A DNA stretch of 64,000 bases from Pseudomonas silesiensis (GTDB lineage Bacteria; Pseudomonadota; Gammaproteobacteria; Pseudomonadales; Pseudomonadaceae): assembly GCF_001661075.1 (NCBI RefSeq), contig NZ_CP014870.1:2314501-2378500 (forward strand). Reading direction: 5' to 3'. This document shows, piece by piece, positions 705-11,228 of the stretch (the stretch's first letter is position 1; every line of letters starts with the position of its first letter). The notes under the pieces were generated by a model. It saw only the letters and a program-made list of their open reading frames with translations. It was not told the origin of the DNA and searched no databases. The translations under genes were made by a program, and so were the position numbers.

Positions 705-3371
705 ATGGCCCCCAATCCCACCCGTTTGCTCCGCCGCCTCAACCCCTATTGCGCCCAGGCGCTGAGCGCGGCGGCTTCGTTGTGCCAAAGCCGCGGCCAT
801 GGACAGATCAGCATCGAGCACTGGCTGCTCAAGCTGCTGGAGCAGGGCGAGGGCGACCTGACCCTCATCGCCCGCCGCTACGAATGGGATATGGACGCGC
901 TCTGGCGTGGGCTGCTCGACCATCTCGACAGCCTGCCACGCAGCGTGCAGGGCAAGCCGCAGCTGTGCGGCAAGTTGCAGCAACTGATCAGTAACGCGTG
1001 GCTGCGCGCCTCCCTGGACGACGACCACGAGCGCCTGCGTTCCGCGCATCTGCTCGGTGCGTTGCTGGACACTCCAGGCCTGCTCGCGTGCGACGCCGCC
1101 TGGCCGCTGCTCAGCCTCAGTGATGTTCAATTGCAGCGTTTGTCTGCGCTGCTCGATCAACACTCCGAAGAGCGTCCGCAAGTACAGCAAGAAGTTGCCT
1201 TGGGCCAGATGGACGTGTCTGCTGGCCAACCGATTACCCCGCCATCCGGTGCCGACATGCAGGATGTCCTGCAGGCGGTGCTGGACAAATTCACCCAGGA
1301 CATCACCGCCAAGGCCAGGGCAGGGCGGATCGACCCGGTGTTCGGCCGTGACGATGAGATCCGCCAGGTCATCGACATCCTCAGTCGCCGACGCAAGAAC
1401 AATCCGATGCTGGTCGGCGAACCCGGGGTCGGCAAGACCGCCCTGGTCGAAGGCCTGGCCTTGCGCATTGCCCAGGGCAATGTCCCGGACAGTCTCAAGC
1501 CAGTCAGCTTGCGCACCCTCGACCTGGGGCTGTTGCAAGCGGGCGCCGGGGTCAAAGGCGAATTCGAACAGCGCCTGAAAAACATCATCGACGCCGTGCA
1601 GCAATCAGCCAGCCCGGTGCTGCTGTTTATCGACGAAGCCCACACCCTGATCGGCGCCGGCAACCAGGCGGGCGGCGCCGACGCGGCGAATCTGCTCAAG
1701 CCTGCCCTGGCCCGTGGGGAACTGCGCACCATCGCTGCCACCACCTGGAGCGAGTACAAACAATACTTCGAGCGCGATGCCGCCCTCGAGCGGCGCTTCC
1801 AGACCGTCAAGGTGGACGAGCCGGACGATGCCGGCGCCTGCCTCATGCTGCGGGGCCTCAAGGCGCGCTACGCCAGTCACCATGGCGTGCACATCCAGGA
1901 CGCGGCGGTACAGGCCGCGGTCAGCTTGTCGCGGCGCTACCTGACCGGCCGGCAACTGCCGGACAAAGCCGTCGACCTGCTCGACACCGCCAGCGCGCGA
2001 GTGCGCATGAGCCTCGACTGTGAACCCCAGGAACTGGTCCGGCTCAAGGCCCGGCAGGCCGCCCTGGAACTGGAGAGCCAGGCCCTCGAAGAGGATCGGC
2101 AAGTCATGGGCGGCAACGCCGGCGAGCGTCTGGCGACGATCGCTGCGCAACAGGCGGATTTGCAAGATGAACACACCGAGCTCGACCAGCAATACCGGCA
2201 TGAACTCGCCCTGTCACGACAATTGCTCGACGCACGCCAGGCCGAACCACCGCGGCCGGATGTCTGCGAACAGTTGCAACGACGACTGACCGACGCCCAG
2301 GGCAACCAACCCTTGCTGGCCCTCGACGTCAGCGCCCGCAGCGTCGCCGAAGTGATCGCCGACTGGACCGGGGTGCCACTGGGCAGTCTGCTCAAGGACG
2401 AACACGCCAACCTGCTGGCACTAGAGCAGCAATTGAGCGAACGGGTCATCGGCCAGGAGCCGGCGTTGAATGCCCTTGCCCAGCGGCTGCGGGCCGCCAG
2501 GACCGGCCTGACCGAAGAACAGGCGCCGCTGGGGGTGTTCCTGCTGGTGGGCACCAGTGGCGTCGGCAAGACCGAGACCGCACTGGCCCTGGCCGACTGC
2601 CTGTTTGGAGGCGAGAAATCGCTGATCACCCTCAACCTCTCCGAGTACCAGGAAGCCCACACCGTCAGCCAACTCAAAGGCTCGCCGCCGGGCTACGTCG
2701 GTTACGGCCAGGGGGGCGTACTCACCGAAGCCGTGCGTCAACGGCCCTACAGCGTGGTGCTGCTCGACGAAGTGGAGAAGGCCCACCGCGATGTCATCAA
2801 CCTGTTTTACCAGGTGTTCGACCGTGGCTTCATGCGCGATGGCGAAGGGCGTGAAATCGACTTCCGTAACACCGTCATTCTGATGACTTCCAACCTCGGC
2901 AGCGACCCACTGCAGGCCTGCCTGCAGCAACAGCCTGACGCGCCGGACAGCACCCTGCAGGAACTGCTGCGGCCGATCCTGCGCGAGCACTTCCAGCCGG
3001 CCCTGCTGGCGCGTTTCCAGACCCTGATCTACCGCCCGCTGCAAGCCGACGCCCTCAAGGGCATCGTCGTCCTCAAGCTGGCCCGGGTGGCCCGGCGTCT
3101 GCAGCGTCACTACGGCCTGGCCTGCCAGATTGACGAGGCCCTCAACGACGCCCTGGTTGCCGCCTGCCTGCTGCCCGACTCCGGCGCGCGCAACATCGAC
3201 AGCCTGCTCAACCAGCAGATCCTGCCGGTGCTCAGCCAGCAACTGCTGCAACGCCAGGCGGCCGGGCAGACAACCGACGGCGTGAACCTGGGCTACAGCG
3301 ACGATTACGGCGTAACCCTGCATTTCACCAACGCCCACGACGCCGCGCACCTTGCCGCGATGGAGGGGTGA
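705..3371 (+). CDS. clpV: T6SS sheath-recycling ATPase ClpV (TssH)
   Basis: ClpV is the AAA+ unfoldase that disassembles the contracted TssB/TssC sheath. The 888-residue protein has a Clp N-domain, a first ATPase module with Walker A GEPGVGKTAL near residue 238 and Walker B LLFIDEAH near 310, a middle coiled-coil region (about 430-520), and a second module with GTSGVGKTET near 616 and VVLLDEVEKAH near 688. Length, order and the divergent N-domain fit TssH rather than ClpB. Its stop overlaps or abuts the vgrG start region, so the two are translationally linked. The long antisense reading frames over this gene are composition shadows. Confidence 0.96.
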   Translation: MAPNPTRLLRRLNPYCAQALSAAASLCQSRGHGQISIEHWLLKLLEQGEGDLTLIARRYEWDMDALWRGLLDHLDSLPRSVQGKPQLCGKLQQLISNAWLRASLDDDHERLRSAHLLGALLDTPGLLACDAAWPLLSLSDVQLQRLSALLDQHSEERPQVQQEVALGQMDVSAGQPITPPSGADMQDVLQAVLDKFTQDITAKARAGRIDPVFGRDDEIRQVIDILSRRRKNNPMLVGEPGVGKTALVEGLALRIAQGNVPDSLKPVSLRTLDLGLLQAGAGVKGEFEQRLKNIIDAVQQSASPVLLFIDEAHTLIGAGNQAGGADAANLLKPALARGELRTIAATTWSEYKQYFERDAALERRFQTVKVDEPDDAGACLMLRGLKARYASHHGVHIQDAAVQAAVSLSRRYLTGRQLPDKAVDLLDTASARVRMSLDCEPQELVRLKARQAALELESQALEEDRQVMGGNAGERLATIAAQQADLQDEHTELDQQYRHELALSRQLLDARQAEPPRPDVCEQLQRRLTDAQGNQPLLALDVSARSVAEVIADWTGVPLGSLLKDEHANLLALEQQLSERVIGQEPALNALAQRLRAARTGLTEEQAPLGVFLLVGTSGVGKTETALALADCLFGGEKSLITLNLSEYQEAHTVSQLKGSPPGYVGYGQGGVLTEAVRQRPYSVVLLDEVEKAHRDVINLFYQVFDRGFMRDGEGREIDFRNTVILMTSNLGSDPLQACLQQQPDAPDSTLQELLRPILREHFQPALLARFQTLIYRPLQADALKGIVVLKLARVARRLQRHYGLACQIDEALNDALVAACLLPDSGARNIDSLLNQQILPVLSQQLLQRQAAGQTTDGVNLGYSDDYGVTLHFTNAHDAAHLAAMEG

Positions 3372-3373
3372 AC

Positions 3374-5752
3374 GTGTCCAGCCAACTGCCCACCTTCTTC
3401 GACCACAGCCGGCACACACTCAGCGTCCACAACTTCGACGCCACCCTCGACGTCCTGGCCTTCCACGGCGAAGAACAACTCAGCCAGCCGTTCCACTACG
3501 TCATCGAATTCACCTGCACCGAACAGGACATCGCCGCCGACCAGTTGCTCAACCGCGACGCCCGCTTCAGCCTGCACGCCCCACCGCGCAAGCCCACCTT
3601 CCTGACCCGGGACCTGCCGATCAAACCGCTGCGCACCCTGCACGGCGTGGTCACCGGCTTCAAGCGCCTGTCCGGCTCCGTCGACGAAGCCCGCTACGAA
3701 ATCACCCTGCAACCGCGCCTGGCACTGCTCGCCCGCGGCCAGCAGTTCCGCCTCTATCAACACCAGTCGGTGCCGGAAATCGTCGAACACATCCTGCGCA
3801 GCCGCCACGATTTTCGCGGCGAGGATTTTTACTTCAAGCTCACCCGCAAGTACCCCAGGCGCCTGCAAGTCATGCAATACGGCGAAAGCGACTTGGCCTT
3901 CATCGCCCGCCTGCTGGCCGAAGTCGGCATCTGGTACCGCTTCACCAGCGACGAACGCCTGCACCTCGACGTCGTCGAATTCCACGACGACCAGCTGCAT
4001 TACCAGTCCGGCATCGAGCTGCCTTGCCACTCGCCGGCCGGCCTGAGCAGCAGCGAGCAGGACGGCGTCTGGGCCTTGCAAACCCAACACCAGGTGGTGG
4101 AACGCCAGGTCAATATCCGCACCTACCAGCACCGCGACGCCTACGCCCACCTGGACGGCGAGATCGACCACACCCGCGGCGCGACCACCACCTACGGCGA
4201 GGCCTACCACTACGCCGAACCCTACACCGCCCTCGGCGACCGCTATCAATTCTACGAAGACCTGCCACCGGAAACCGGCTACTTCTACGCCCGCCTGCAA
4301 CACGAACGTTACCTCAACGACCAGACCCGCCTCAGCGGCACCAGCAGCAGCGCCACCCTGGCCCCGGGCCAGGTGCTGAAAATCACCGGCGGCGCGCCCC
4401 AGGCCTTCGCCCGCGGCACGGTCATCACCCACCTCAGCACCCGCGCCGCCCGCGACGCCAGCTTCGAAGCCCGGTTCCAGGCCATCCCCTATTCGGAAAG
4501 CGTGTGCTTCCGCCCACCGCTGCAGCCCAAACCGCAAATCGCCGGCACCCTCCCGGCCCGGGTCAGCAACCCGCAAAAACACGACCCCTACGCCGAAATC
4601 GACGTTGAAGGGCGCTACTGCGTGCAGTTCCTGTTCGACCGCGACACCTGGAAACCCGGCGAGGAAAGCATGTGGCTGCGCCTGGCCCGGCCCTACGCCG
4701 GCGACACCCACGGCCTGCACCTGCCGCTGATCGCCGGCACCGAAGTGGCGGTGGCCTTCGAACAGGGCGACCCCGACCGCCCCTACATCGCCCACGCCCT
4801 GCACGACAGCGAGCACCGCGACCACGTGACCCTGCGCGCGCGCAATTACAAACGCAACGTGCTGCGCACGCCGGCCAACAACAAGCTGCGGATGGAGGAC
4901 ACAAGGGGCAAAGAGCACGTCAAGCTGAGTACCGAGCACAGTGGCAAGAGCCAGCTGAATCTTGGGCATTTGGTCGATGCCGAGCAGCAGCGGCGGGGTG
5001 AAGGGTTTGAGTTGCGCACCGATGGCTGGGGGTCGATTCGGGCGGGGAAGGGGGTGTTTATCAGTGCCGATGAACAGGCCAAGGCGCAGGGGCCGGTCCT
5101 GGAAATGAGCGCGGCCATCGGCCGCCTGCAACAGGCGGGGGAGCAGCTGCAGCAACTTTCTGAAAATGCCCAGGCCGCCAACGCAGATCCCGCGGATGTG
5201 CAGGCACAACTGGCATTCGTGCGCCAACAACTCGAAGAGCTCAAAGCCGCCGTAGTACTCCTCAGCGCGCCCCAGGGCATCGCCCTCACCAGCGGCAAGC
5301 ATCTGCAATTGGCCGCGCAAAACAACCTGATGCTCAACGCCGGCGGCGAAGCCGACCTCAGCGTGGTCAAGCGCCTGTTCATCGGCGTGGGGCAGGGGCT
5401 CAGCCTGTTCGTGCGCAAGCTGGGCATCAAGCTGATCGCCAATCACGGGCCAGTAAGCGTGCAAGCGCAAAACGACACGCTCGAACTGATGGCCCGTCAC
5501 GGCCTGGCAATCACCAGTACCGAAGACGAAATCCACATCACCGCCAAGAAGAAAATCACCCTCAACGCCGGCGGCAGCTACATCACCCTCGACCCCTCCA
5601 GTATCGAATCGGGAACGGCAGGTGATTACAAGGTCAAGTCGGCGCATTTCGCCTACAGCGGTGCAGCCAAGCAATCGCTGGAAATACCGCCCCTGGCTCA
5701 ATTAACCGAGCATAACTCCACGTCTCTGGGGCGTACGGATTTCTCCGGCTGA
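3374..5752 (+). CDS. vgrG: T6SS spike protein VgrG (TssI)
   Basis: VgrG trimers form the spike on top of the Hcp tube. The roughly 792-residue protein has the gp27-like part in the first ~400 residues, an OB/gp5-like segment (YAEIDVEGRYCVQFLFDRD and following), and a C-terminal DUF2345-type beta-helix segment after about residue 590 (SAPQGIALTSGKHLQLAAQN). The chosen GTG at 3374 has GGAGGGG just upstream at good spacing; GTG at 3368, overlapping the clpV stop, is the alternative and adds two residues. No separate enzymatic domain is seen at the C-terminus. The next gene is the likely cargo. Codon composition becomes less GC-rich after about 4900. Confidence 0.95.
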   Translation: MSSQLPTFFDHSRHTLSVHNFDATLDVLAFHGEEQLSQPFHYVIEFTCTEQDIAADQLLNRDARFSLHAPPRKPTFLTRDLPIKPLRTLHGVVTGFKRLSGSVDEARYEITLQPRLALLARGQQFRLYQHQSVPEIVEHILRSRHDFRGEDFYFKLTRKYPRRLQVMQYGESDLAFIARLLAEVGIWYRFTSDERLHLDVVEFHDDQLHYQSGIELPCHSPAGLSSSEQDGVWALQTQHQVVERQVNIRTYQHRDAYAHLDGEIDHTRGATTTYGEAYHYAEPYTALGDRYQFYEDLPPETGYFYARLQHERYLNDQTRLSGTSSSATLAPGQVLKITGGAPQAFARGTVITHLSTRAARDASFEARFQAIPYSESVCFRPPLQPKPQIAGTLPARVSNPQKHDPYAEIDVEGRYCVQFLFDRDTWKPGEESMWLRLARPYAGDTHGLHLPLIAGTEVAVAFEQGDPDRPYIAHALHDSEHRDHVTLRARNYKRNVLRTPANNKLRMEDTRGKEHVKLSTEHSGKSQLNLGHLVDAEQQRRGEGFELRTDGWGSIRAGKGVFISADEQAKAQGPVLEMSAAIGRLQQAGEQLQQLSENAQAANADPADVQAQLAFVRQQLEELKAAVVLLSAPQGIALTSGKHLQLAAQNNLMLNAGGEADLSVVKRLFIGVGQGLSLFVRKLGIKLIANHGPVSVQAQNDTLELMARHGLAITSTEDEIHITAKKKITLNAGGSYITLDPSSIESGTAGDYKVKSAHFAYSGAAKQSLEIPPLAQLTEHNSTSLGRTDFSG

Positions 5753-5786: not shown

Positions 5787-8468
5787 ATGGCCAACTTGCT
5801 TGCCCGACTTTTTGGTTTTCACGACACCCGCAGTGACTCGCGGGTGGATCGGCCGGCACCGCCGGTCTTGCCGACGCCTGACACCCGGCCTGTTCCATTG
5901 TCTCCAGCACCCAGTAGCGACACTCTGCCACCGCTGAAAAACTGGAGCCATCCGTTCAAGTGCAAAGATCCGCTCGGGGACAAACGCAACCCGCTGTCGC
6001 AGCTCACCCACATGGCCAAGGCCAAAGCCGGCTATTTTCCCTTGGGACGCAGCGGCCTCTGGCACGGCGGCGTGCACTTCGACAGCGGCACCGCCGGCGA
6101 CCTGAATCAATCCAGCGTGCACTGCCTGGCCGACGGCGAAGTAGTGGCGTATCGCATCGACACGCAGGCGCCGACCACGACCTATTTCGTCAATAAACAA
6201 ACCGTAGAAAAGCCGTTCTCGCGTAACTTCGTACTGGTCCGCCATCGGCTTCAGCCACCGAAGATCGAAGGCCGCCCGGACATGCCGCGCAGCCTGATCT
6301 TCTACAGCCTGTACATGCACCTGCGGGATTGGTCGGTGTACCGGAAGGACGCCGCCATCGTTCGTCCAGCGTGTTGGCCCGAGAGCCCGATCCTTCGCGT
6401 TAAACAGACGGTGAACGACGTCCGCCCCGGAAACCTTGAAGAGCGTGGCCTGAACGTGCGTATCAAGGCCTGGCCGGGCCAAGTGATCGACCTCCTGCCA
6501 CCGGGTGCCGAGGTGACCGTCAGTGGAGAGGGCAGCTATCGCAAGCTGGAGAACAGCCTCGGCCCCGCCAAACTGATCAACGCCGATGGCTCGATAGCCG
6601 GCTACCTCGCCGCCAGCCTTCTGCAACCGGTTGCCGGCAACGAGTACCGCATCACGTCAACGCAAGAGAGGGTCAATGTTCGCGCTGAACCAAGCGCTTC
6701 TAGCCAGGTACTTGTAGAACTGCCGGTGGGAACGTTAGTCAGGGTCAGCGGTGAAGGCGAGTTTCGTAAGCTGGAACGCGTGAATCAGTATGTGCATTTC
6801 GACTCGCTGGAAGGTGCGCAGGAACCGCTGGCGTTAGATCGCGTGGTGGTGCTCGACACGCCTGTTCCCATCAAGGCCGGCGCGTTGATCGGTCACCTCG
6901 GCGAGTACCAGGACGGCGGCGCTGATCAGCCAGAGGAAAAGCTGCACCTGGAAGTGTTCAGTAACGATGACGTCGATTTATTCATCAAGGACAGTCGCGA
7001 CTGGGCCCAGCGCCTACCGGATAAGGACAGAACCTGGCTGAAGCTAGCCAAAGGCACCGCTGTGGTGCCTCATCAAGAGAATGCCACCGCAGCCCAACTG
7101 AAGGTATGGAGCGCCGACAGCCCAATCAGTGCTGCCGACTTATTGGTCCCCAAGAGTGTGCTGGAGGCTTTGCCGGCCGACAGAAAAATCCAGGTGGCCG
7201 CGAGCGACAGCCGCAAAGCCAGCAACTGGTATCGCCTGGATGGGCTGCTCCACGACGCCGACAACCACCTGCTCGACGGTTGGGTGCGCGAAGAAGTCGG
7301 CATCACGCCTTGGCTCAGTCCCTGGTCGTGGGAGGGCTATGACCTTATTTTCGACTACAGCACCCCCAAACACTTGATGGCCTCCTTTCTCAGTGCCGTC
7401 GACGGTTTCACCGAAGAGCAACGCGAGCGCTTCCGGCCCTTGGCTGATAAAGACGACAAGGGGCCGATGAAAAGCCGGCTGTACGAGATCATCGACCGTA
7501 ACCGCGACGGTAAGATGACCGCCGAAGAACTGCAAGCGGTCCTCCACCTGCCGGCCCATGCGCAAGCGATCTCGCAGTTGATCATCCGCAAGGAAAGCGA
7601 GTGGTTTCACCAGGCGAGGAAGTGGGACGCGCTGGATGAATTGCTCGGCCATAGCGGCTCGACTCCGCATCTGAACTGGTTGGCGGAGAAGCAGCGGATC
7701 CAGCAGATGTGTTGGTGGGGTGAGGTGGCGGAGAAAGTGGGGTTGCCGTCGTGGGGCAAGGTCTTTCACTTTCATCCAGTTGGCTTGGCAATGAGGTTTA
7801 ATGTTGCATGCCCTGAAGAGTGCATTGTTGAAACATACAGGCTGGAGAGTGCCGGTGGCCCACTTGTTGTTTCTAAAGAGTCATTTGAATTGATCCTGGA
7901 AAAGGAAGGATATAGTAAATATCCCTATGTGCCAGCTGGAGCGAGCGGAGTTACTGTTGGATACGGGTATGACTTGGGGCAGCAAACGATAGCGCAAGTT
8001 CGTCAGGATTTTGCCCAGATCTATAGTCAGTCAGATATTGAAACTCTGATAGTTTCGGTTGGAAAACAAGGCGATCAAGCGAGAAGCGTCTTGAGCTCTG
8101 TCAATCATGTGTCTATAAGCAAAGAAGACTCCATCGCCCTTGCTATAAAAATGAAAAAACGCTATGCGCAGTTGGTAATCAATGCTTACCCCGGGGTTAT
8201 GGGCTTGCACCCGCATTGCCAAGGAGCACTTCTATCTCTTGTGGTTAACAGAGGCAACTCTTTTACGCAACCAAATACCGAATCTCGGTTGGAGATGAAA
8301 CAAATAAACGATGACTTATTAAATTTTAGTCCGGAAAAAATTCCATCTAGGCTTCGCTCGATGAAAAGACTCTGGGAAGGGAAAGCGGGGCTCGGGGGGT
8401 TGATAATCCGCCGAGAAGATGAGGCCAAACTTTTTGAGAAGGGTATAAAATGCGACTGTTGGGATTGA
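5787..8468 (+). CDS. T6SS cargo effector: M23-like, SH3b, EF-hand and pesticin-like lysozyme domains
   Basis: Probable peptidoglycan-degrading antibacterial effector carried by the VgrG encoded just before it. The 893-residue protein has no signal peptide. A degenerate M23-like region (WHGGVHF at residue 92, LADGEVVAY, SLYMHL) keeps histidines but has His where M23 has the metal-binding Asp. Two SH3b-like modules follow (about 205-275 and 286-345). An EF-hand-like loop DRNRDGKMTAEEL starts at 570. The last ~190 residues resemble the pesticin/T4-lysozyme fold: E707 in LEKEGY, T723 and D729 in VTVGYGYDLG. The T-to-D spacing of 6 equals that of pesticin T201/D207. The gene turns AT-rich after about 7780. 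Its end overlaps the next gene by 19 bases. Domain names come from recognition of motifs; activity is inferred. Confidence 0.85.
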   Translation: MANLLARLFGFHDTRSDSRVDRPAPPVLPTPDTRPVPLSPAPSSDTLPPLKNWSHPFKCKDPLGDKRNPLSQLTHMAKAKAGYFPLGRSGLWHGGVHFDSGTAGDLNQSSVHCLADGEVVAYRIDTQAPTTTYFVNKQTVEKPFSRNFVLVRHRLQPPKIEGRPDMPRSLIFYSLYMHLRDWSVYRKDAAIVRPACWPESPILRVKQTVNDVRPGNLEERGLNVRIKAWPGQVIDLLPPGAEVTVSGEGSYRKLENSLGPAKLINADGSIAGYLAASLLQPVAGNEYRITSTQERVNVRAEPSASSQVLVELPVGTLVRVSGEGEFRKLERVNQYVHFDSLEGAQEPLALDRVVVLDTPVPIKAGALIGHLGEYQDGGADQPEEKLHLEVFSNDDVDLFIKDSRDWAQRLPDKDRTWLKLAKGTAVVPHQENATAAQLKVWSADSPISAADLLVPKSVLEALPADRKIQVAASDSRKASNWYRLDGLLHDADNHLLDGWVREEVGITPWLSPWSWEGYDLIFDYSTPKHLMASFLSAVDGFTEEQRERFRPLADKDDKGPMKSRLYEIIDRNRDGKMTAEELQAVLHLPAHAQAISQLIIRKESEWFHQARKWDALDELLGHSGSTPHLNWLAEKQRIQQMCWWGEVAEKVGLPSWGKVFHFHPVGLAMRFNVACPEECIVETYRLESAGGPLVVSKESFELILEKEGYSKYPYVPAGASGVTVGYGYDLGQQTIAQVRQDFAQIYSQSDIETLIVSVGKQGDQARSVLSSVNHVSISKEDSIALAIKMKKRYAQLVINAYPGVMGLHPHCQGALLSLVVNRGNSFTQPNTESRLEMKQINDDLLNFSPEKIPSRLRSMKRLWEGKAGLGGLIIRREDEAKLFEKGIKCDCWD

Positions 8469-9022
8469 TGGTATGTTTTTCTAACTTTTTTTGGGTTTCG
8501 TTAGTTGTTGCTGGTAATGATTGTAATCCAAATAGCCCGGTCACTAAGGATATTCTTGAGTGCGCAAATTCAGCGTATAAGCGAGTTGACAAAAAACTAA
8601 ATGAGCAATACCGAATATTGGTGTCTAGCTCTAAGTTTCCTAATAAAAACTTACTTCTGGAAGGAGAGCGGGCGTGGATTAAATACAGAGATGCGCACTG
8701 CAATAATATTTACGAGTCTGTATACCCCGGTGAAGAAGCTGGAATTGAGAAAGTAGGGTGTCTTACTTCCTTGACGTCATCAAGACTGGTGGAGTTGGTT
8801 TACTTGGAGACAGGTGCGAGCGGCGATGGTTTCTACAACTCACTTTCAATAATGAGCAAAATTTCTTCAAAAGCAAGGGAGGAAATCCTATCGTACATTG
8901 AGAGCTTGGACCAGGACCCTGAAGAGTCTGAATATTATAAAAAAAATTGTGAGTTGACAGTTCTTGCTCATGCGGAAGTAGAAAGGCTCTGTCGAGTTCG
9001 AATGAAATTTCAGGGTGTGTAG
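8450..9022 (+). CDS. LprI-like (DUF1311) periplasmic protein, candidate immunity protein
   Basis: Likely periplasmic inhibitor protecting the producer from the lysozyme-like effector encoded just upstream. The 190-residue protein starts with a hydrophobic signal-like segment (about 1-21), then follows the LprI N-terminal pattern: paired cysteines, a helix LNEQYRILV, the ERAWIKYRDAHC motif and a closing cysteine with TSSRLVELVY. LprI of Mycobacterium is a known lysozyme inhibitor; members of this fold next to lysozyme-type effectors are plausible immunity proteins. AGAAGGG lies 7 bases before the ATG, which is inside the effector gene, so the two are translationally coupled. The gene is AT-rich like the effector tail. 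The C-terminal ~70 residues are not recognised. Confidence 0.78.
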   Translation: MRLLGLMVCFSNFFWVSLVVAGNDCNPNSPVTKDILECANSAYKRVDKKLNEQYRILVSSSKFPNKNLLLEGERAWIKYRDAHCNNIYESVYPGEEAGIEKVGCLTSLTSSRLVELVYLETGASGDGFYNSLSIMSKISSKAREEILSYIESLDQDPEESEYYKKNCELTVLAHAEVERLCRVRMKFQGV

Positions 9023-9064
9023 GTAGAAGGCGCAGCATTAGAAATACTTAATAGGAGAAATAGG

Positions 9065-9580
9065 ATGATAGCGAGAGTTTTATTTTTGTTGTTGATATCG
9101 CTGTGTGGGCTGAGCTATGCAGAACTATCTCCGTCTTCTTCAGGCTTTTGCGAAACTTTGGATGAACAGGCCGTAAGCCACTGCTTGCAGAGAAGAGTGG
9201 GAGATGGTGACAAACTACTGGGTCAGGTTTATACAGATCTGTATTCAAATGCATCAATGATAAATTCGGGTAGAAGTGGAGGTGTACTTGCTCGCTACAT
9301 AAAAACCTTCGAAAACGACTGTTTAGCAATAGAAATTATAAGCGTTCAAGGGAAGCTGGAAGTATTGGAGAGCATGAATTTATGCAGCTTTGAAGGTAAG
9401 CCTTTTTCAACGGGATTTGCTCAGGCTGGATTCCAAGATATTACCTTTGAAGAAGATGGGATTCACTTAGTTTTAAGCATTGCGCCATTAGAGCCTACGG
9501 GAGAGCAGTTACGTAAATGCTCCATACCAATCGATAACGGGAAAATGAGCCGCTTGTACTGTTCCGAGCCTTTAGAATGA
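9065..9580 (+). CDS. Exported small protein in effector cassette, unrecognised
   Basis: A 171-residue protein with a clear signal peptide (MIARVLFLLLISLCGLSYA) and five cysteines in the mature part, so it is probably periplasmic with disulfides. I do not recognise the family with confidence. The region FCETLDEQAVSHCLQRRVG is faintly like DUF1311 proteins but lacks the WxxxRDxxC motif. AGGAG stands 7 bases before ATG, 42 bases after the LprI-like gene, and base composition is equally AT-rich. Inference: a second immunity or accessory protein of the same cassette, possibly a diverged duplicate immunity gene. Confidence 0.7.
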   Translation: MIARVLFLLLISLCGLSYAELSPSSSGFCETLDEQAVSHCLQRRVGDGDKLLGQVYTDLYSNASMINSGRSGGVLARYIKTFENDCLAIEIISVQGKLEVLESMNLCSFEGKPFSTGFAQAGFQDITFEEDGIHLVLSIAPLEPTGEQLRKCSIPIDNGKMSRLYCSEPLE

Positions 9581-9734: not shown

Positions 9735-9999
9735 ATGAAAGGCATCATCCATGTTGGTGGCATAACAACTAGAGGTCGAACCGTACTGTCAGGTTCAGTT
9801 GTGGTGAAGTTTGCAATTGTTCGCGCAGCTCGTGAGGAAGACCCGGTGCTGTACCCGATTCCTGAGCATCGCCGCACGGTGACAGCCAAGAGGCTATCCA
9901 ATGTTTAGAGACAAACATTTTTCAGTCGCATCTGACGGTCAATCATACGCTTGCGGCTGCGCATTGATTATCTCCCCGATTGAAGCGAGGGCGAGTTAG
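9735..9999 (+). pseudogene. Frameshifted and decayed PAAR-domain gene
   Basis: PAAR proteins cap the VgrG spike. The frame from ATG 9735 gives MKGIIHVGGITTRGRTVLSG and DPVLYPIPEH, then shifts and stops at 9908. The +1 frame continues with GYPMFRDKHFSVASDGQ and YACGCALIIS to the stop at 9997-9999, which is the usual PAAR C-terminus. One extra base around 9885-9892 explains the break; without it the protein would be about 87 residues, the normal length. Conserved positions are also changed: the family pattern I know is TTHGG and CPIPGH, here TTRGR and YPIPEH. Substitutions plus frameshift suggest real decay, not only a sequencing error. Confidence 0.8.
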
Positions 10000-10001
10000 T
10001 C

Positions 10002-11228
10002 ATGCCCATCAGACTGGATAAAGTACCTGCTCCCGCGCTACGTCCTGCCCGCCCTCGCTTCTGGCTTTGGTTCATCTTGCTGTTGCTGTGTTCATTGCTC
10101 AGTGTGGGAGGGACTTTATTGCTAGGCGATGAACCCTTGCGCCAAAAGCCTGTTGATTTCTGGAGTTTGGCCTTGGGCCTGCCGATCTTGGGGTGGTGTG
10201 TGGTGGGTTTCGGGCGAGTGCTATTTCACATCGGCGAACAGTCCGCTGCCGACGGCTGGGATGAGGCCCGCGAAAAGGCCTTGATCCGCAAGATTCGTCA
10301 GGGGCGACGCTCGCAGCAGGTATTGGGAGTGAGTCTGCATACCGCCCTGCTAGATTCCGCGGACGAGCCAACAGCCCAACTCGACGCTTTGTTGAGTGGC
10401 ACCGAGGCACTGAAGACGCAGCCGTCGAGGATGGACGATGCACCTGTAAGTCACAGCCGCTTTGTCGAAGGCTCAGGTGAGGACCTGGAAGCGGTACTGA
10501 CGAGTGTATTAGAGAAGAGGCTGGCTGACCTGGCGCCGATCCTGGCGCAATTGCCTGACGATAAACCTTTGGCCCTGTTACTGGAGATCGACTGCAGGTT
10601 ACCCGAGGACCAGTGGCGCCTTGTGTGGCGAAAGATATGGCAGGAGTCCGGCATCCGCCAATCGACTGTCTCTGTCGAGGGCAGTGGGCTGGCCGCGCTG
10701 GACCAATGGCTTGACCAGCGCATCGGCGACCAGGCCTTGCTGCTGGTGCTGGCCGTGCAGCTTGCACCGGAACAGCCCGAGGGCACGGCAGAAGTCGCCG
10801 TCGGTGTGTTGTTCGGCAATCGCCTGACGCAAACCACCTTGGCGCCGATCGCCTACTTGCACCGTCCTGAGCAGGAGCGCCAGCCTACCGACGCCGATCT
10901 GCTCTATGCCACGCGTCAAGCCCTCGATTGGGTGCCGCTTGAAGCGAAGTCAATCGAGAAGACCTGGCGGGTGGGTATCGACCCACAACGTCATGCGGGC
11001 ATCGCGACCGTGTTGGCTAAAGAACCCCTGTTGGGCAAGCAGGCGCCTTGCAACCTCGATGCGTTGCTGGGCCATCCCGGGAAAGCATCCCCTTGGCTGG
11101 CCATCGCGGCCGCGACGCAGACGATTGAGCGCGGCGCTGGAGCGCAATTGATTTTCAGTGGTGGTGGCCCTGCCACGGCCGGACTCTGGGGCACGGTCTT
11201 GATGCCGGTGTCAGCACTTTCTAAATAG
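10002..11228 (+). CDS. T6SS-locus membrane protein of unknown function
   Basis: A 408-residue protein with two N-terminal membrane segments (about 20-42 and 52-72, around LWFILLLLCSLLSVGGTLLL) and a long soluble domain of about 330 residues. No enzymatic motif is seen. It starts 2 bases after the broken PAAR gene and ends 9 bases before tssM, so it belongs to the operon. Genes of this kind occur before tssM in T6SS loci with the same order (tssM-tssA-tssF-tssG-tssJ-tssE); I know no assigned function. Inference: an accessory of the TssM/TssL membrane complex. Confidence 0.75.
   Translation: MPIRLDKVPAPALRPARPRFWLWFILLLLCSLLSVGGTLLLGDEPLRQKPVDFWSLALGLPILGWCVVGFGRVLFHIGEQSAADGWDEAREKALIRKIRQGRRSQQVLGVSLHTALLDSADEPTAQLDALLSGTEALKTQPSRMDDAPVSHSRFVEGSGEDLEAVLTSVLEKRLADLAPILAQLPDDKPLALLLEIDCRLPEDQWRLVWRKIWQESGIRQSTVSVEGSGLAALDQWLDQRIGDQALLLVLAVQLAPEQPEGTAEVAVGVLFGNRLTQTTLAPIAYLHRPEQERQPTDADLLYATRQALDWVPLEAKSIEKTWRVGIDPQRHAGIATVLAKEPLLGKQAPCNLDALLGHPGKASPWLAIAAATQTIERGAGAQLIFSGGGPATAGLWGTVLMPVSALSK

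What the first reader, a model, noticed from the sequence alone, without database searches (positions are those of the whole stretch)
5787..9580. Composite lysozyme-type T6SS effector with LprI-like immunity
Seen: a gene directly after vgrG with M23-like, SH3b and EF-hand parts and a pesticin-like catalytic triad layout (E707, T723, D729). It overlaps a gene for a periplasmic protein with the LprI/DUF1311 pattern. Known: LprI inhibits lysozyme; pesticin is a muramidase. Inference: an effector/immunity pair in which the immunity protein is a lysozyme-inhibitor fold. The pairing of pesticin-type toxin and LprI-type immunity appears little described.
Basis: partly seen in the sequence, partly recalled or inferred. 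Interest (0 to 1): 0.72.

Follow-up and report, generated by a model that had tools for sequence, protein, structure and literature searches.

The report
T6SS pesticin-type effector with LprI immunity
Next to a bacterial injection machine's spike gene sit a cell-wall-cutting toxin built on a known delivery scaffold and the small helical protein that most likely protects its owner; the pair is a new member of a known kind, but it gives the poorly understood LprI domain a clear, testable job.

The parts
3368..5752 (+). vgrG (TssI), likely carrier of the effector
   Evidence: TIGR01646 1.8e-122, TIGR03361 1.4e-73; Phage_GPD, DUF2345, T6SS_Vgr
5787..8468 (+). effector, 893 aa: WHIX/TseP-type front, SH3, EF-hand-like motif, pesticin-fold tail
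5922..6962 (+). front domain, aa ~46-392: WHGGVH (aa 92-97), SLYMHL (174-179), KLHLEVF (385-391); WHIX-type delivery, M23-like motifs
   Evidence: H93, H97, H387 in 19 of 19 and H178 in 17 of 19 aligned fronts, window included
6669..6755 (+). SH3_3 match, aa 295-323, lying between the two halves of the front domain
   Evidence: PF08239 3.7e-6
7479..7547 (+). EF-hand-like loop, aa 565-587 (DRNRDGKMTAEE), below the curated cut-off
   Evidence: PF13405 9e-4
7809..8465 (+). toxin tail, aa 675-893, pesticin/GH24-like fold; G+C about 45% against 60% in the front part
7905..7907 (+). codon of E707 (aligned to pesticin E178)
7953..7955 (+). codon of T723 (aligned to pesticin T201)
7971..7973 (+). codon of D729 (aligned to pesticin D207)
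8450..9022 (+). immunity gene, 190 aa, apparent Sec signal (read by eye, no signal-peptide program run), LprI domain plus helical C-terminal extension
   Evidence: PF07007 1.8e-16; model pLDDT 85; fold matches
9065..9580 (+). likely orphan immunity gene, 171 aa: aa 60-169 belong to the immunity family that partners type-C pesticin tails
   Evidence: E 1.7e-35 for a database of 10,000; no Pfam family
9735..9975 (+). degraded PAAR gene remnant, similarity in two frames; intact PAAR at the same place in L052
   Evidence: (tblastn), PAAR_motif 1.9e-20 for the L052 gene

Best explanation
A polymorphic T6SS antibacterial effector with its immunity gene. The front (aa 1 to ~670), a WHIX/TseP-type module, docks on the VgrG encoded just upstream and carries the tail into a neighbouring bacterium (inferred from the published WHIX and TseP work). 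The tail, a pesticin-fold muramidase with E707/T723/D729 in the active site, cuts peptidoglycan glycan strands in the prey periplasm (fold and residues shown by computation; activity inferred). The 8450-9022 product, exported to the owner's periplasm (signal read by eye), is a helical LprI-domain protein that blocks the tail, probably by covering its substrate groove (linkage and fold shown; binding inferred from the fold shared with TsiV3, for which an effector-immunity complex is solved). Tail and immunity gene moved in as one low-G+C cassette behind a resident front (inferred from G+C and the tail swaps). The 9065-9580 product probably guards against a different pesticin-tail subtype that was not found in this genome.
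Confidence: 0.87

Rival explanations
1. The protein is a two-toxin effector: the front is itself an active Zn-dependent peptidoglycan amidase, and the LprI protein (or another) must also neutralise it.
For: TseP's front is reported as a Zn amidase with conserved H19, H23, H109, H339 among others, and TsiP blocks both halves (PMC11893102, passages). The window protein has the same kind of HxxxH plus two later His, kept in 17-19 of 19 aligned fronts.
Against: M23 similarity is weak by profile; the first His of the M23 HxH motif is Lys or another residue here. The front is constant over copies with different neighbours, so an immunity protein for the front would be expected to be constant too. 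The WHIX paper treats this region as a secretion domain.
Confidence: 0.35
2. The third gene (9065-9580), not the LprI gene, is the cognate immunity gene.
For: It is secreted-looking, close by, equally low in G+C and belongs to a family that partners pesticin-type tails.
Against: Its family sits behind type-C tails; type-A tails have LprI next door in 8 of 8 genus loci. L052, with the same kind of effector and LprI gene, has a PAAR gene there instead.
Confidence: 0.05
3. The LprI neighbour is a periplasmic housekeeping or cell-wall protein whose adjacency is incidental.
For: LprI-domain genes exist elsewhere in this genome (3 hits in all), and the ScwA study found no lysozyme protection.
Against: Recurrence 24 of 33 against 0 of 23 in the control, the overlap of the two frames, and tail-specific co-divergence.
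Confidence: 0.03
4. The effector is no longer deliverable: the PAAR gene of the cassette is degraded, so the locus is a relic kept for immunity only.
For: PAAR similarity is split over two frames at 9735-9975, whereas L052 keeps an intact PAAR gene there.
Against: The effector, vgrG and the core genes looked at are open and the active site is intact; other PAAR genes of the genome could serve (not searched).
Confidence: 0.12

Closest known systems
WHIX effectors (Fridman et al. 2025, PMC12135965; section 6 and passages read)
   Same: WHxxxH motif near the N-terminus, front split in two conserved parts, pesticin lysozyme-like C-terminal class (448 proteins), spike-gene neighbourhood, DUF1311/LprI immunity neighbours
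TseP-TsiP of Aeromonas dhakensis (PMC11893102; passages read)
   Same: Long front with HxxxH and later His residues, lysozyme tail, G+C break between the halves, VgrG carrier
   Different: The TseP tail was solved with an SPN1S endolysin search model and the word pesticin does not occur in the text; any relation of TsiP to LprI was not seen in the passages
VgrG3cp-TsiV3cp of Vibrio cholerae E1 (PMC9927483; passages read)
   Same: Pesticin-like T6SS tail with the T and D catalytic residues; muramidase activity and cognate immunity shown there
   Different: Tail is fused to VgrG itself; their text gives two of the three pesticin residues as conserved, here all three are
VgrG3-TsiV3 (structures 4NOO, 4NSO, 4NSR; that the partner of 4NSO is VgrG3 is recalled)
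   Same: TsiV3 shares the helical fold of the window's LprI protein; a front copy in this genome pairs a VgrG3-like tail with a TsiV3-family gene
   Different: Different tail family (PF21277, not PF16754); different Pfam family for the immunity protein (PF20889)
LysM effector SED_RS06235 / LprI protein SED_RS06230 in Salmonella Dublin (PMC8867033; passages read)
   Same: T6SS peptidoglycan effector next to a secreted LprI protein, proposed as immunity
   Different: Different toxin domain; prediction only in the passages read

Membership tests
WHIX-class T6SS effector | WHxxxH motif in the first conserved region | tested here: met
   WHGGVH at aa 92-97; the two His in 19 of 19 aligned fronts
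WHIX-class T6SS effector | Homology to the published WHIX reference domain (V. alginolyticus WP_005373349.1) | not tested
WHIX-class T6SS effector | Constant front with variable tails, near spike genes | tested here: met
   Own-genome copies match only to aa 670-695 and carry other tails; tails of 23 genus relatives include GH19 in 14, N-acetylmuramidase in 2, VgrG3-like in 1; vgrG upstream
WHIX-class T6SS effector | Front is sufficient for T6SS secretion | not testable with these tools
   Needs a secretion assay
Pesticin (PF16754) muramidase | Sequence match over the curated cut-off | tested here: met
   28.5 bits against 25.8, aa 701-796; modest score
Pesticin (PF16754) muramidase | Pesticin fold | tested here: met
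Pesticin (PF16754) muramidase | Catalytic E178/T201/D207 (named in PMC9927483) | tested here: met
   Aligned to E707/T723/D729 by the A5 profile; 28 of 28 invariant
Pesticin (PF16754) muramidase | Muramidase activity | not testable with these tools
   Needs peptidoglycan digestion
LprI / DUF1311 (PF07007) | Pfam match over cut-off and DUF1311 fold | tested here: met
TsiV3 superfamily (proposed union with LprI) | Shared fold and signature residues | tested here: inconclusive
M23 peptidase | Significant M23 sequence match and intact catalytic motifs | tested here: inconclusive
   No Pfam hit for the window protein; 2 of 13 fronts at E up to 1, best 0.017; hhalign E 5e-4, probability 13%
T6SS effector-immunity pair | Cognate gene adjacent, secreted, protective | tested here: inconclusive
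   Adjacency and recurrence met; secretion signal by eye only; protection not testable here

The most novel reading that the evidence does not exclude
LprI/DUF1311 and TsiV3 are one superfamily of small helical, Cys-rich periplasmic immunity proteins whose T6SS job is to block lysozyme-superfamily toxins (pesticin-type and VgrG3-type), and members of it have followed these tails as they were swapped between delivery fronts. In some Pseudomonas an LprI domain has been fused to a second, unrelated anti-pesticin immunity domain into a single two-headed protein (13 of 29 loci examined). This would give the 'lysozyme inhibitor' label of PF07007 a real basis. Against it: one genus effector with a VgrG3-like tail (one among 23; L032, by eye) is not followed by a gene that Pfam calls LprI or TsiV3.
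Probability: 0.5. Interest if true: 0.6.

Novelty: new member of a known kind. Interest (0 to 1): 0.46.

Why it matters
The function of the widespread LprI/DUF1311 domain is unsettled: named after a mycobacterial lysozyme inhibitor, yet PMC7933661 (2021) reports no support for that role of the domain itself. A clean set of natural toxin-immunity pairs, in which the LprI gene follows one toxin tail and not the delivery part, makes the question directly testable in laboratory E. coli. The locus also shows a low-G+C tail-plus-immunity cassette behind a constant front, a likely orphan immunity gene against a sister toxin, and, elsewhere in the same genome, the same front with a VgrG3/TsiV3 cassette, a good natural comparison.

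Tried and rejected
Hybrid origin of 9065-9580: its N-terminus looked like an LprI start (E 0.032; 5.2e-5 in a very small search), but 73 of 2000 shuffles of that stretch scored as well against the LprI part of the fused relatives; dropped. The relation of aa 60-169 to the type-C immunity family stands.

M23 as the identity of the front: motif pattern present, profile support weak; kept only as 'M23-like', with TseP's published superposition on 3SLU.

TseP numbering (H19, H23, H109, H339) was compared with spacings in 19 fronts; similar to, but not identical with, any row. TseP itself was not fetched.

PADLOC: no hit for the three proteins at E up to 0.01. Plasmids: 87 records match the effector, all under 60% identity; not followed. 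Carobbi et al. 2022, cited in the WHIX paper for DUF1311 in T6SS immunity, is not held; I know it here only through citations. A search for TsiV3, VgrG3, crystal structure and lysozyme inhibitor together found no paper. No held paper listed joins TsiV3 with LprI, DUF1311 or PF07007 (listing). PMC9022076 (passages) reports a pesticin-like gene between two vgrG genes in a plant-beneficial strain; not compared. PMC12396204 turned out not to bear on the question.

Rows dropped: L140 (frame interrupted) from the neighbour count, leaving 33 of 34. One search gives the number 24 only; which nine lack LprI (L127, L128, L131-L135, L137, L138) is my reading. L124, L125, L139 are missing from the distance test (not in A2). 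One place, G698:C34:1476-1661, of the 37 long-type places besides the window was not analysed. L108/L092 and L109/L052 are the same genes seen in two collections, so the genus counts and the 34 loci overlap.
Full report
What is there. The window begins inside a T6SS cluster: hcp (62-544), clpV (705-3371), vgrG (3368-5752), the effector (5787-8468), an LprI gene (8450-9022), a third small secreted-looking gene (9065-9580), a decayed PAAR stretch (9735-9975), then a 408-aa gene without a Pfam match, tssM, tssA, tssF, tssG, tssJ and a gene with ImpA_N and OmpA domains. The genome is a single 6.82 Mb contig; the nearest named relatives of the locus are Pseudomonas, so the host is taken to be a Pseudomonas. 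G+C is 60% in the effector's front part, 45% in its tail, 41% in the LprI gene, 42% in the third gene and 61% in the next full gene, which suggests a tail-plus-immunity cassette.

The front. The first ~670 residues occur at four more places in the same genome, with 88, 74, 70 and 70/63% identity, the last copy interrupted; the similarity stops where the tail begins. Tails and neighbours differ from the window's. In the genus, 69 of 249 genomes match the effector. The front carries WHGGVH at aa 92-97, which fits the WHxxxH motif after which the WHIX delivery domain is named (PMC12135965, section 6). That paper lists 448 WHIX proteins with pesticin lysozyme-like tails and names DUF1311/LprI among the immunity neighbours. 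TseP, whose paper is cited there for a secreted WHIX protein, has a front reported to be a Zn amidase and superposed on 3SLU (PMC11893102, passages; that 3SLU is an M23 peptidase is recalled). Whether it is an enzyme here is open.

The pairing. In the genus sample 47 of 398 genomes have a PF16754 match, at 53 places. Fifteen are short high-scoring genes (L057-L071), not identified further. Besides the window there are 37 others, of which I examined 36. Their tails fall, by eye, into four subtypes. LprI neighbours by HMM: type A, the window's type, 8 of 8; type B 6 of 6; type C 0 of 19; type D 0 of 3, with a clean gap in scores (E 4.3e-13 or better against 0.19 or worse). A scan of the named genome collection with the type-A tail gave 34 loci in Pseudomonas, Burkholderia and relatives, Acinetobacter, Aeromonas, Pantoea, Ewingella, Actinobacillus and others. 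The downstream gene matches Pfam LprI (E up to 0.01) in 24 of the 33 that could be tested. Of the nine others, seven share, by eye, a different secreted-looking protein, one (L127) has its own, and L138 is cut by its contig end. In L117, L119, L124 and L125 the tail sits behind a different front, in L117 PAAR-like by eye, and still has an LprI neighbour. Controls: of 23 WHIX effectors with other tails (Pfam: GH19 in 14, N-acetylmuramidase in 2, VgrG3-like in 1, Pesticin in 0), 0 of 23 have LprI in the next gene at the same Pfam threshold; a local HMM gives 0 of 23 below 1e-3, with two marginal (L017, L035), and 0 of 15 for the short pesticin-domain genes. Tail and immunity distances correlate (r 0.85, 22 pairs). 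In the 15 sets with a front, front and immunity also correlate (r 0.74), but with the front held constant tail-immunity stays at 0.75 (p 2e-4), while front-immunity with the tail held constant is 0.17 (p 0.11). The immunity gene thus follows the toxin tail, as a cognate immunity gene should.

The third gene. Residues 60-169 belong to the immunity family of type-C tails (E 1.7e-35 for 10,000 sequences); relatives occur in 31 of 249 genus genomes, the own one included. The own genome has no PF16754 match besides the window's, so no type-C tail was found for it: a likely orphan immunity gene. In 13 of 29 loci of relatives examined, a full LprI domain is fused to this second domain in a protein of 253-272 aa. 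I fetched the surroundings of five of these: a WHIX effector lies within 10 kb in three (L172, L173, L174), and in the four where my gene picker showed the fused gene it stands among small secreted-looking genes (in L174 the picker hid it). Polyimmunity proteins as a concept are in PMC3482391 (passages), whose held text has no occurrence of pesticin or DUF1311. The window's gene is not shown to be such a fusion.

Verdict. The part worth a specialist's time is the LprI-TsiV3 link and the clear test it offers for the function of PF07007. Literature basis: PMC12135965 section 6 plus passages; the other papers passages or search listings only; Carobbi 2022 and Sethi 2016 only as cited.

Noticed in passing
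L145-L152, L155-L159 (253-272 aa genes): Thirteen Pseudomonas genes fuse a full LprI domain to the type-C immunity domain in one secreted-looking protein, a possible two-headed immunity protein.
   Followed up: partly
L053: 2163-5199 (own genome, minus strand): A front copy 88% identical to the window's carries a VgrG3-like tail with a TsiV3-family immunity gene; the TsiV3 family was found in 1 of 249 genus genomes searched, this one.
   Followed up: partly
window 9735-9975: Remnant of a PAAR gene, split over two frames, between the third gene and the next full gene; intact in L052.
   Followed up: partly
L056: 3325-6092 (own genome, minus strand): Another front copy is interrupted; it is followed by several small secreted-looking genes, and a relative of the 9065-9580 protein (25% identity) lies in this region.
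   Followed up: no
L173: 11132-15124 (reversed) and L182: 796-2034: Rows of small secreted-looking genes include a lone long-type LprI gene beside a fused one, and in L182 an LprI domain behind an unknown N-terminal part, as in orphan immunity arrays.
   Followed up: no
L041 and L047: Pesticin-domain genes of two other genomes of the class also have an LprI gene nearby, suggesting that the pairing extends beyond WHIX effectors; the L047 pesticin match is below the curated cut-off.
   Followed up: no
window 10002-11228: A 408-aa protein before tssM has no Pfam match at E up to 1e-5 but, by eye, recurs next to other front copies (L052, L055, L056).
   Followed up: no
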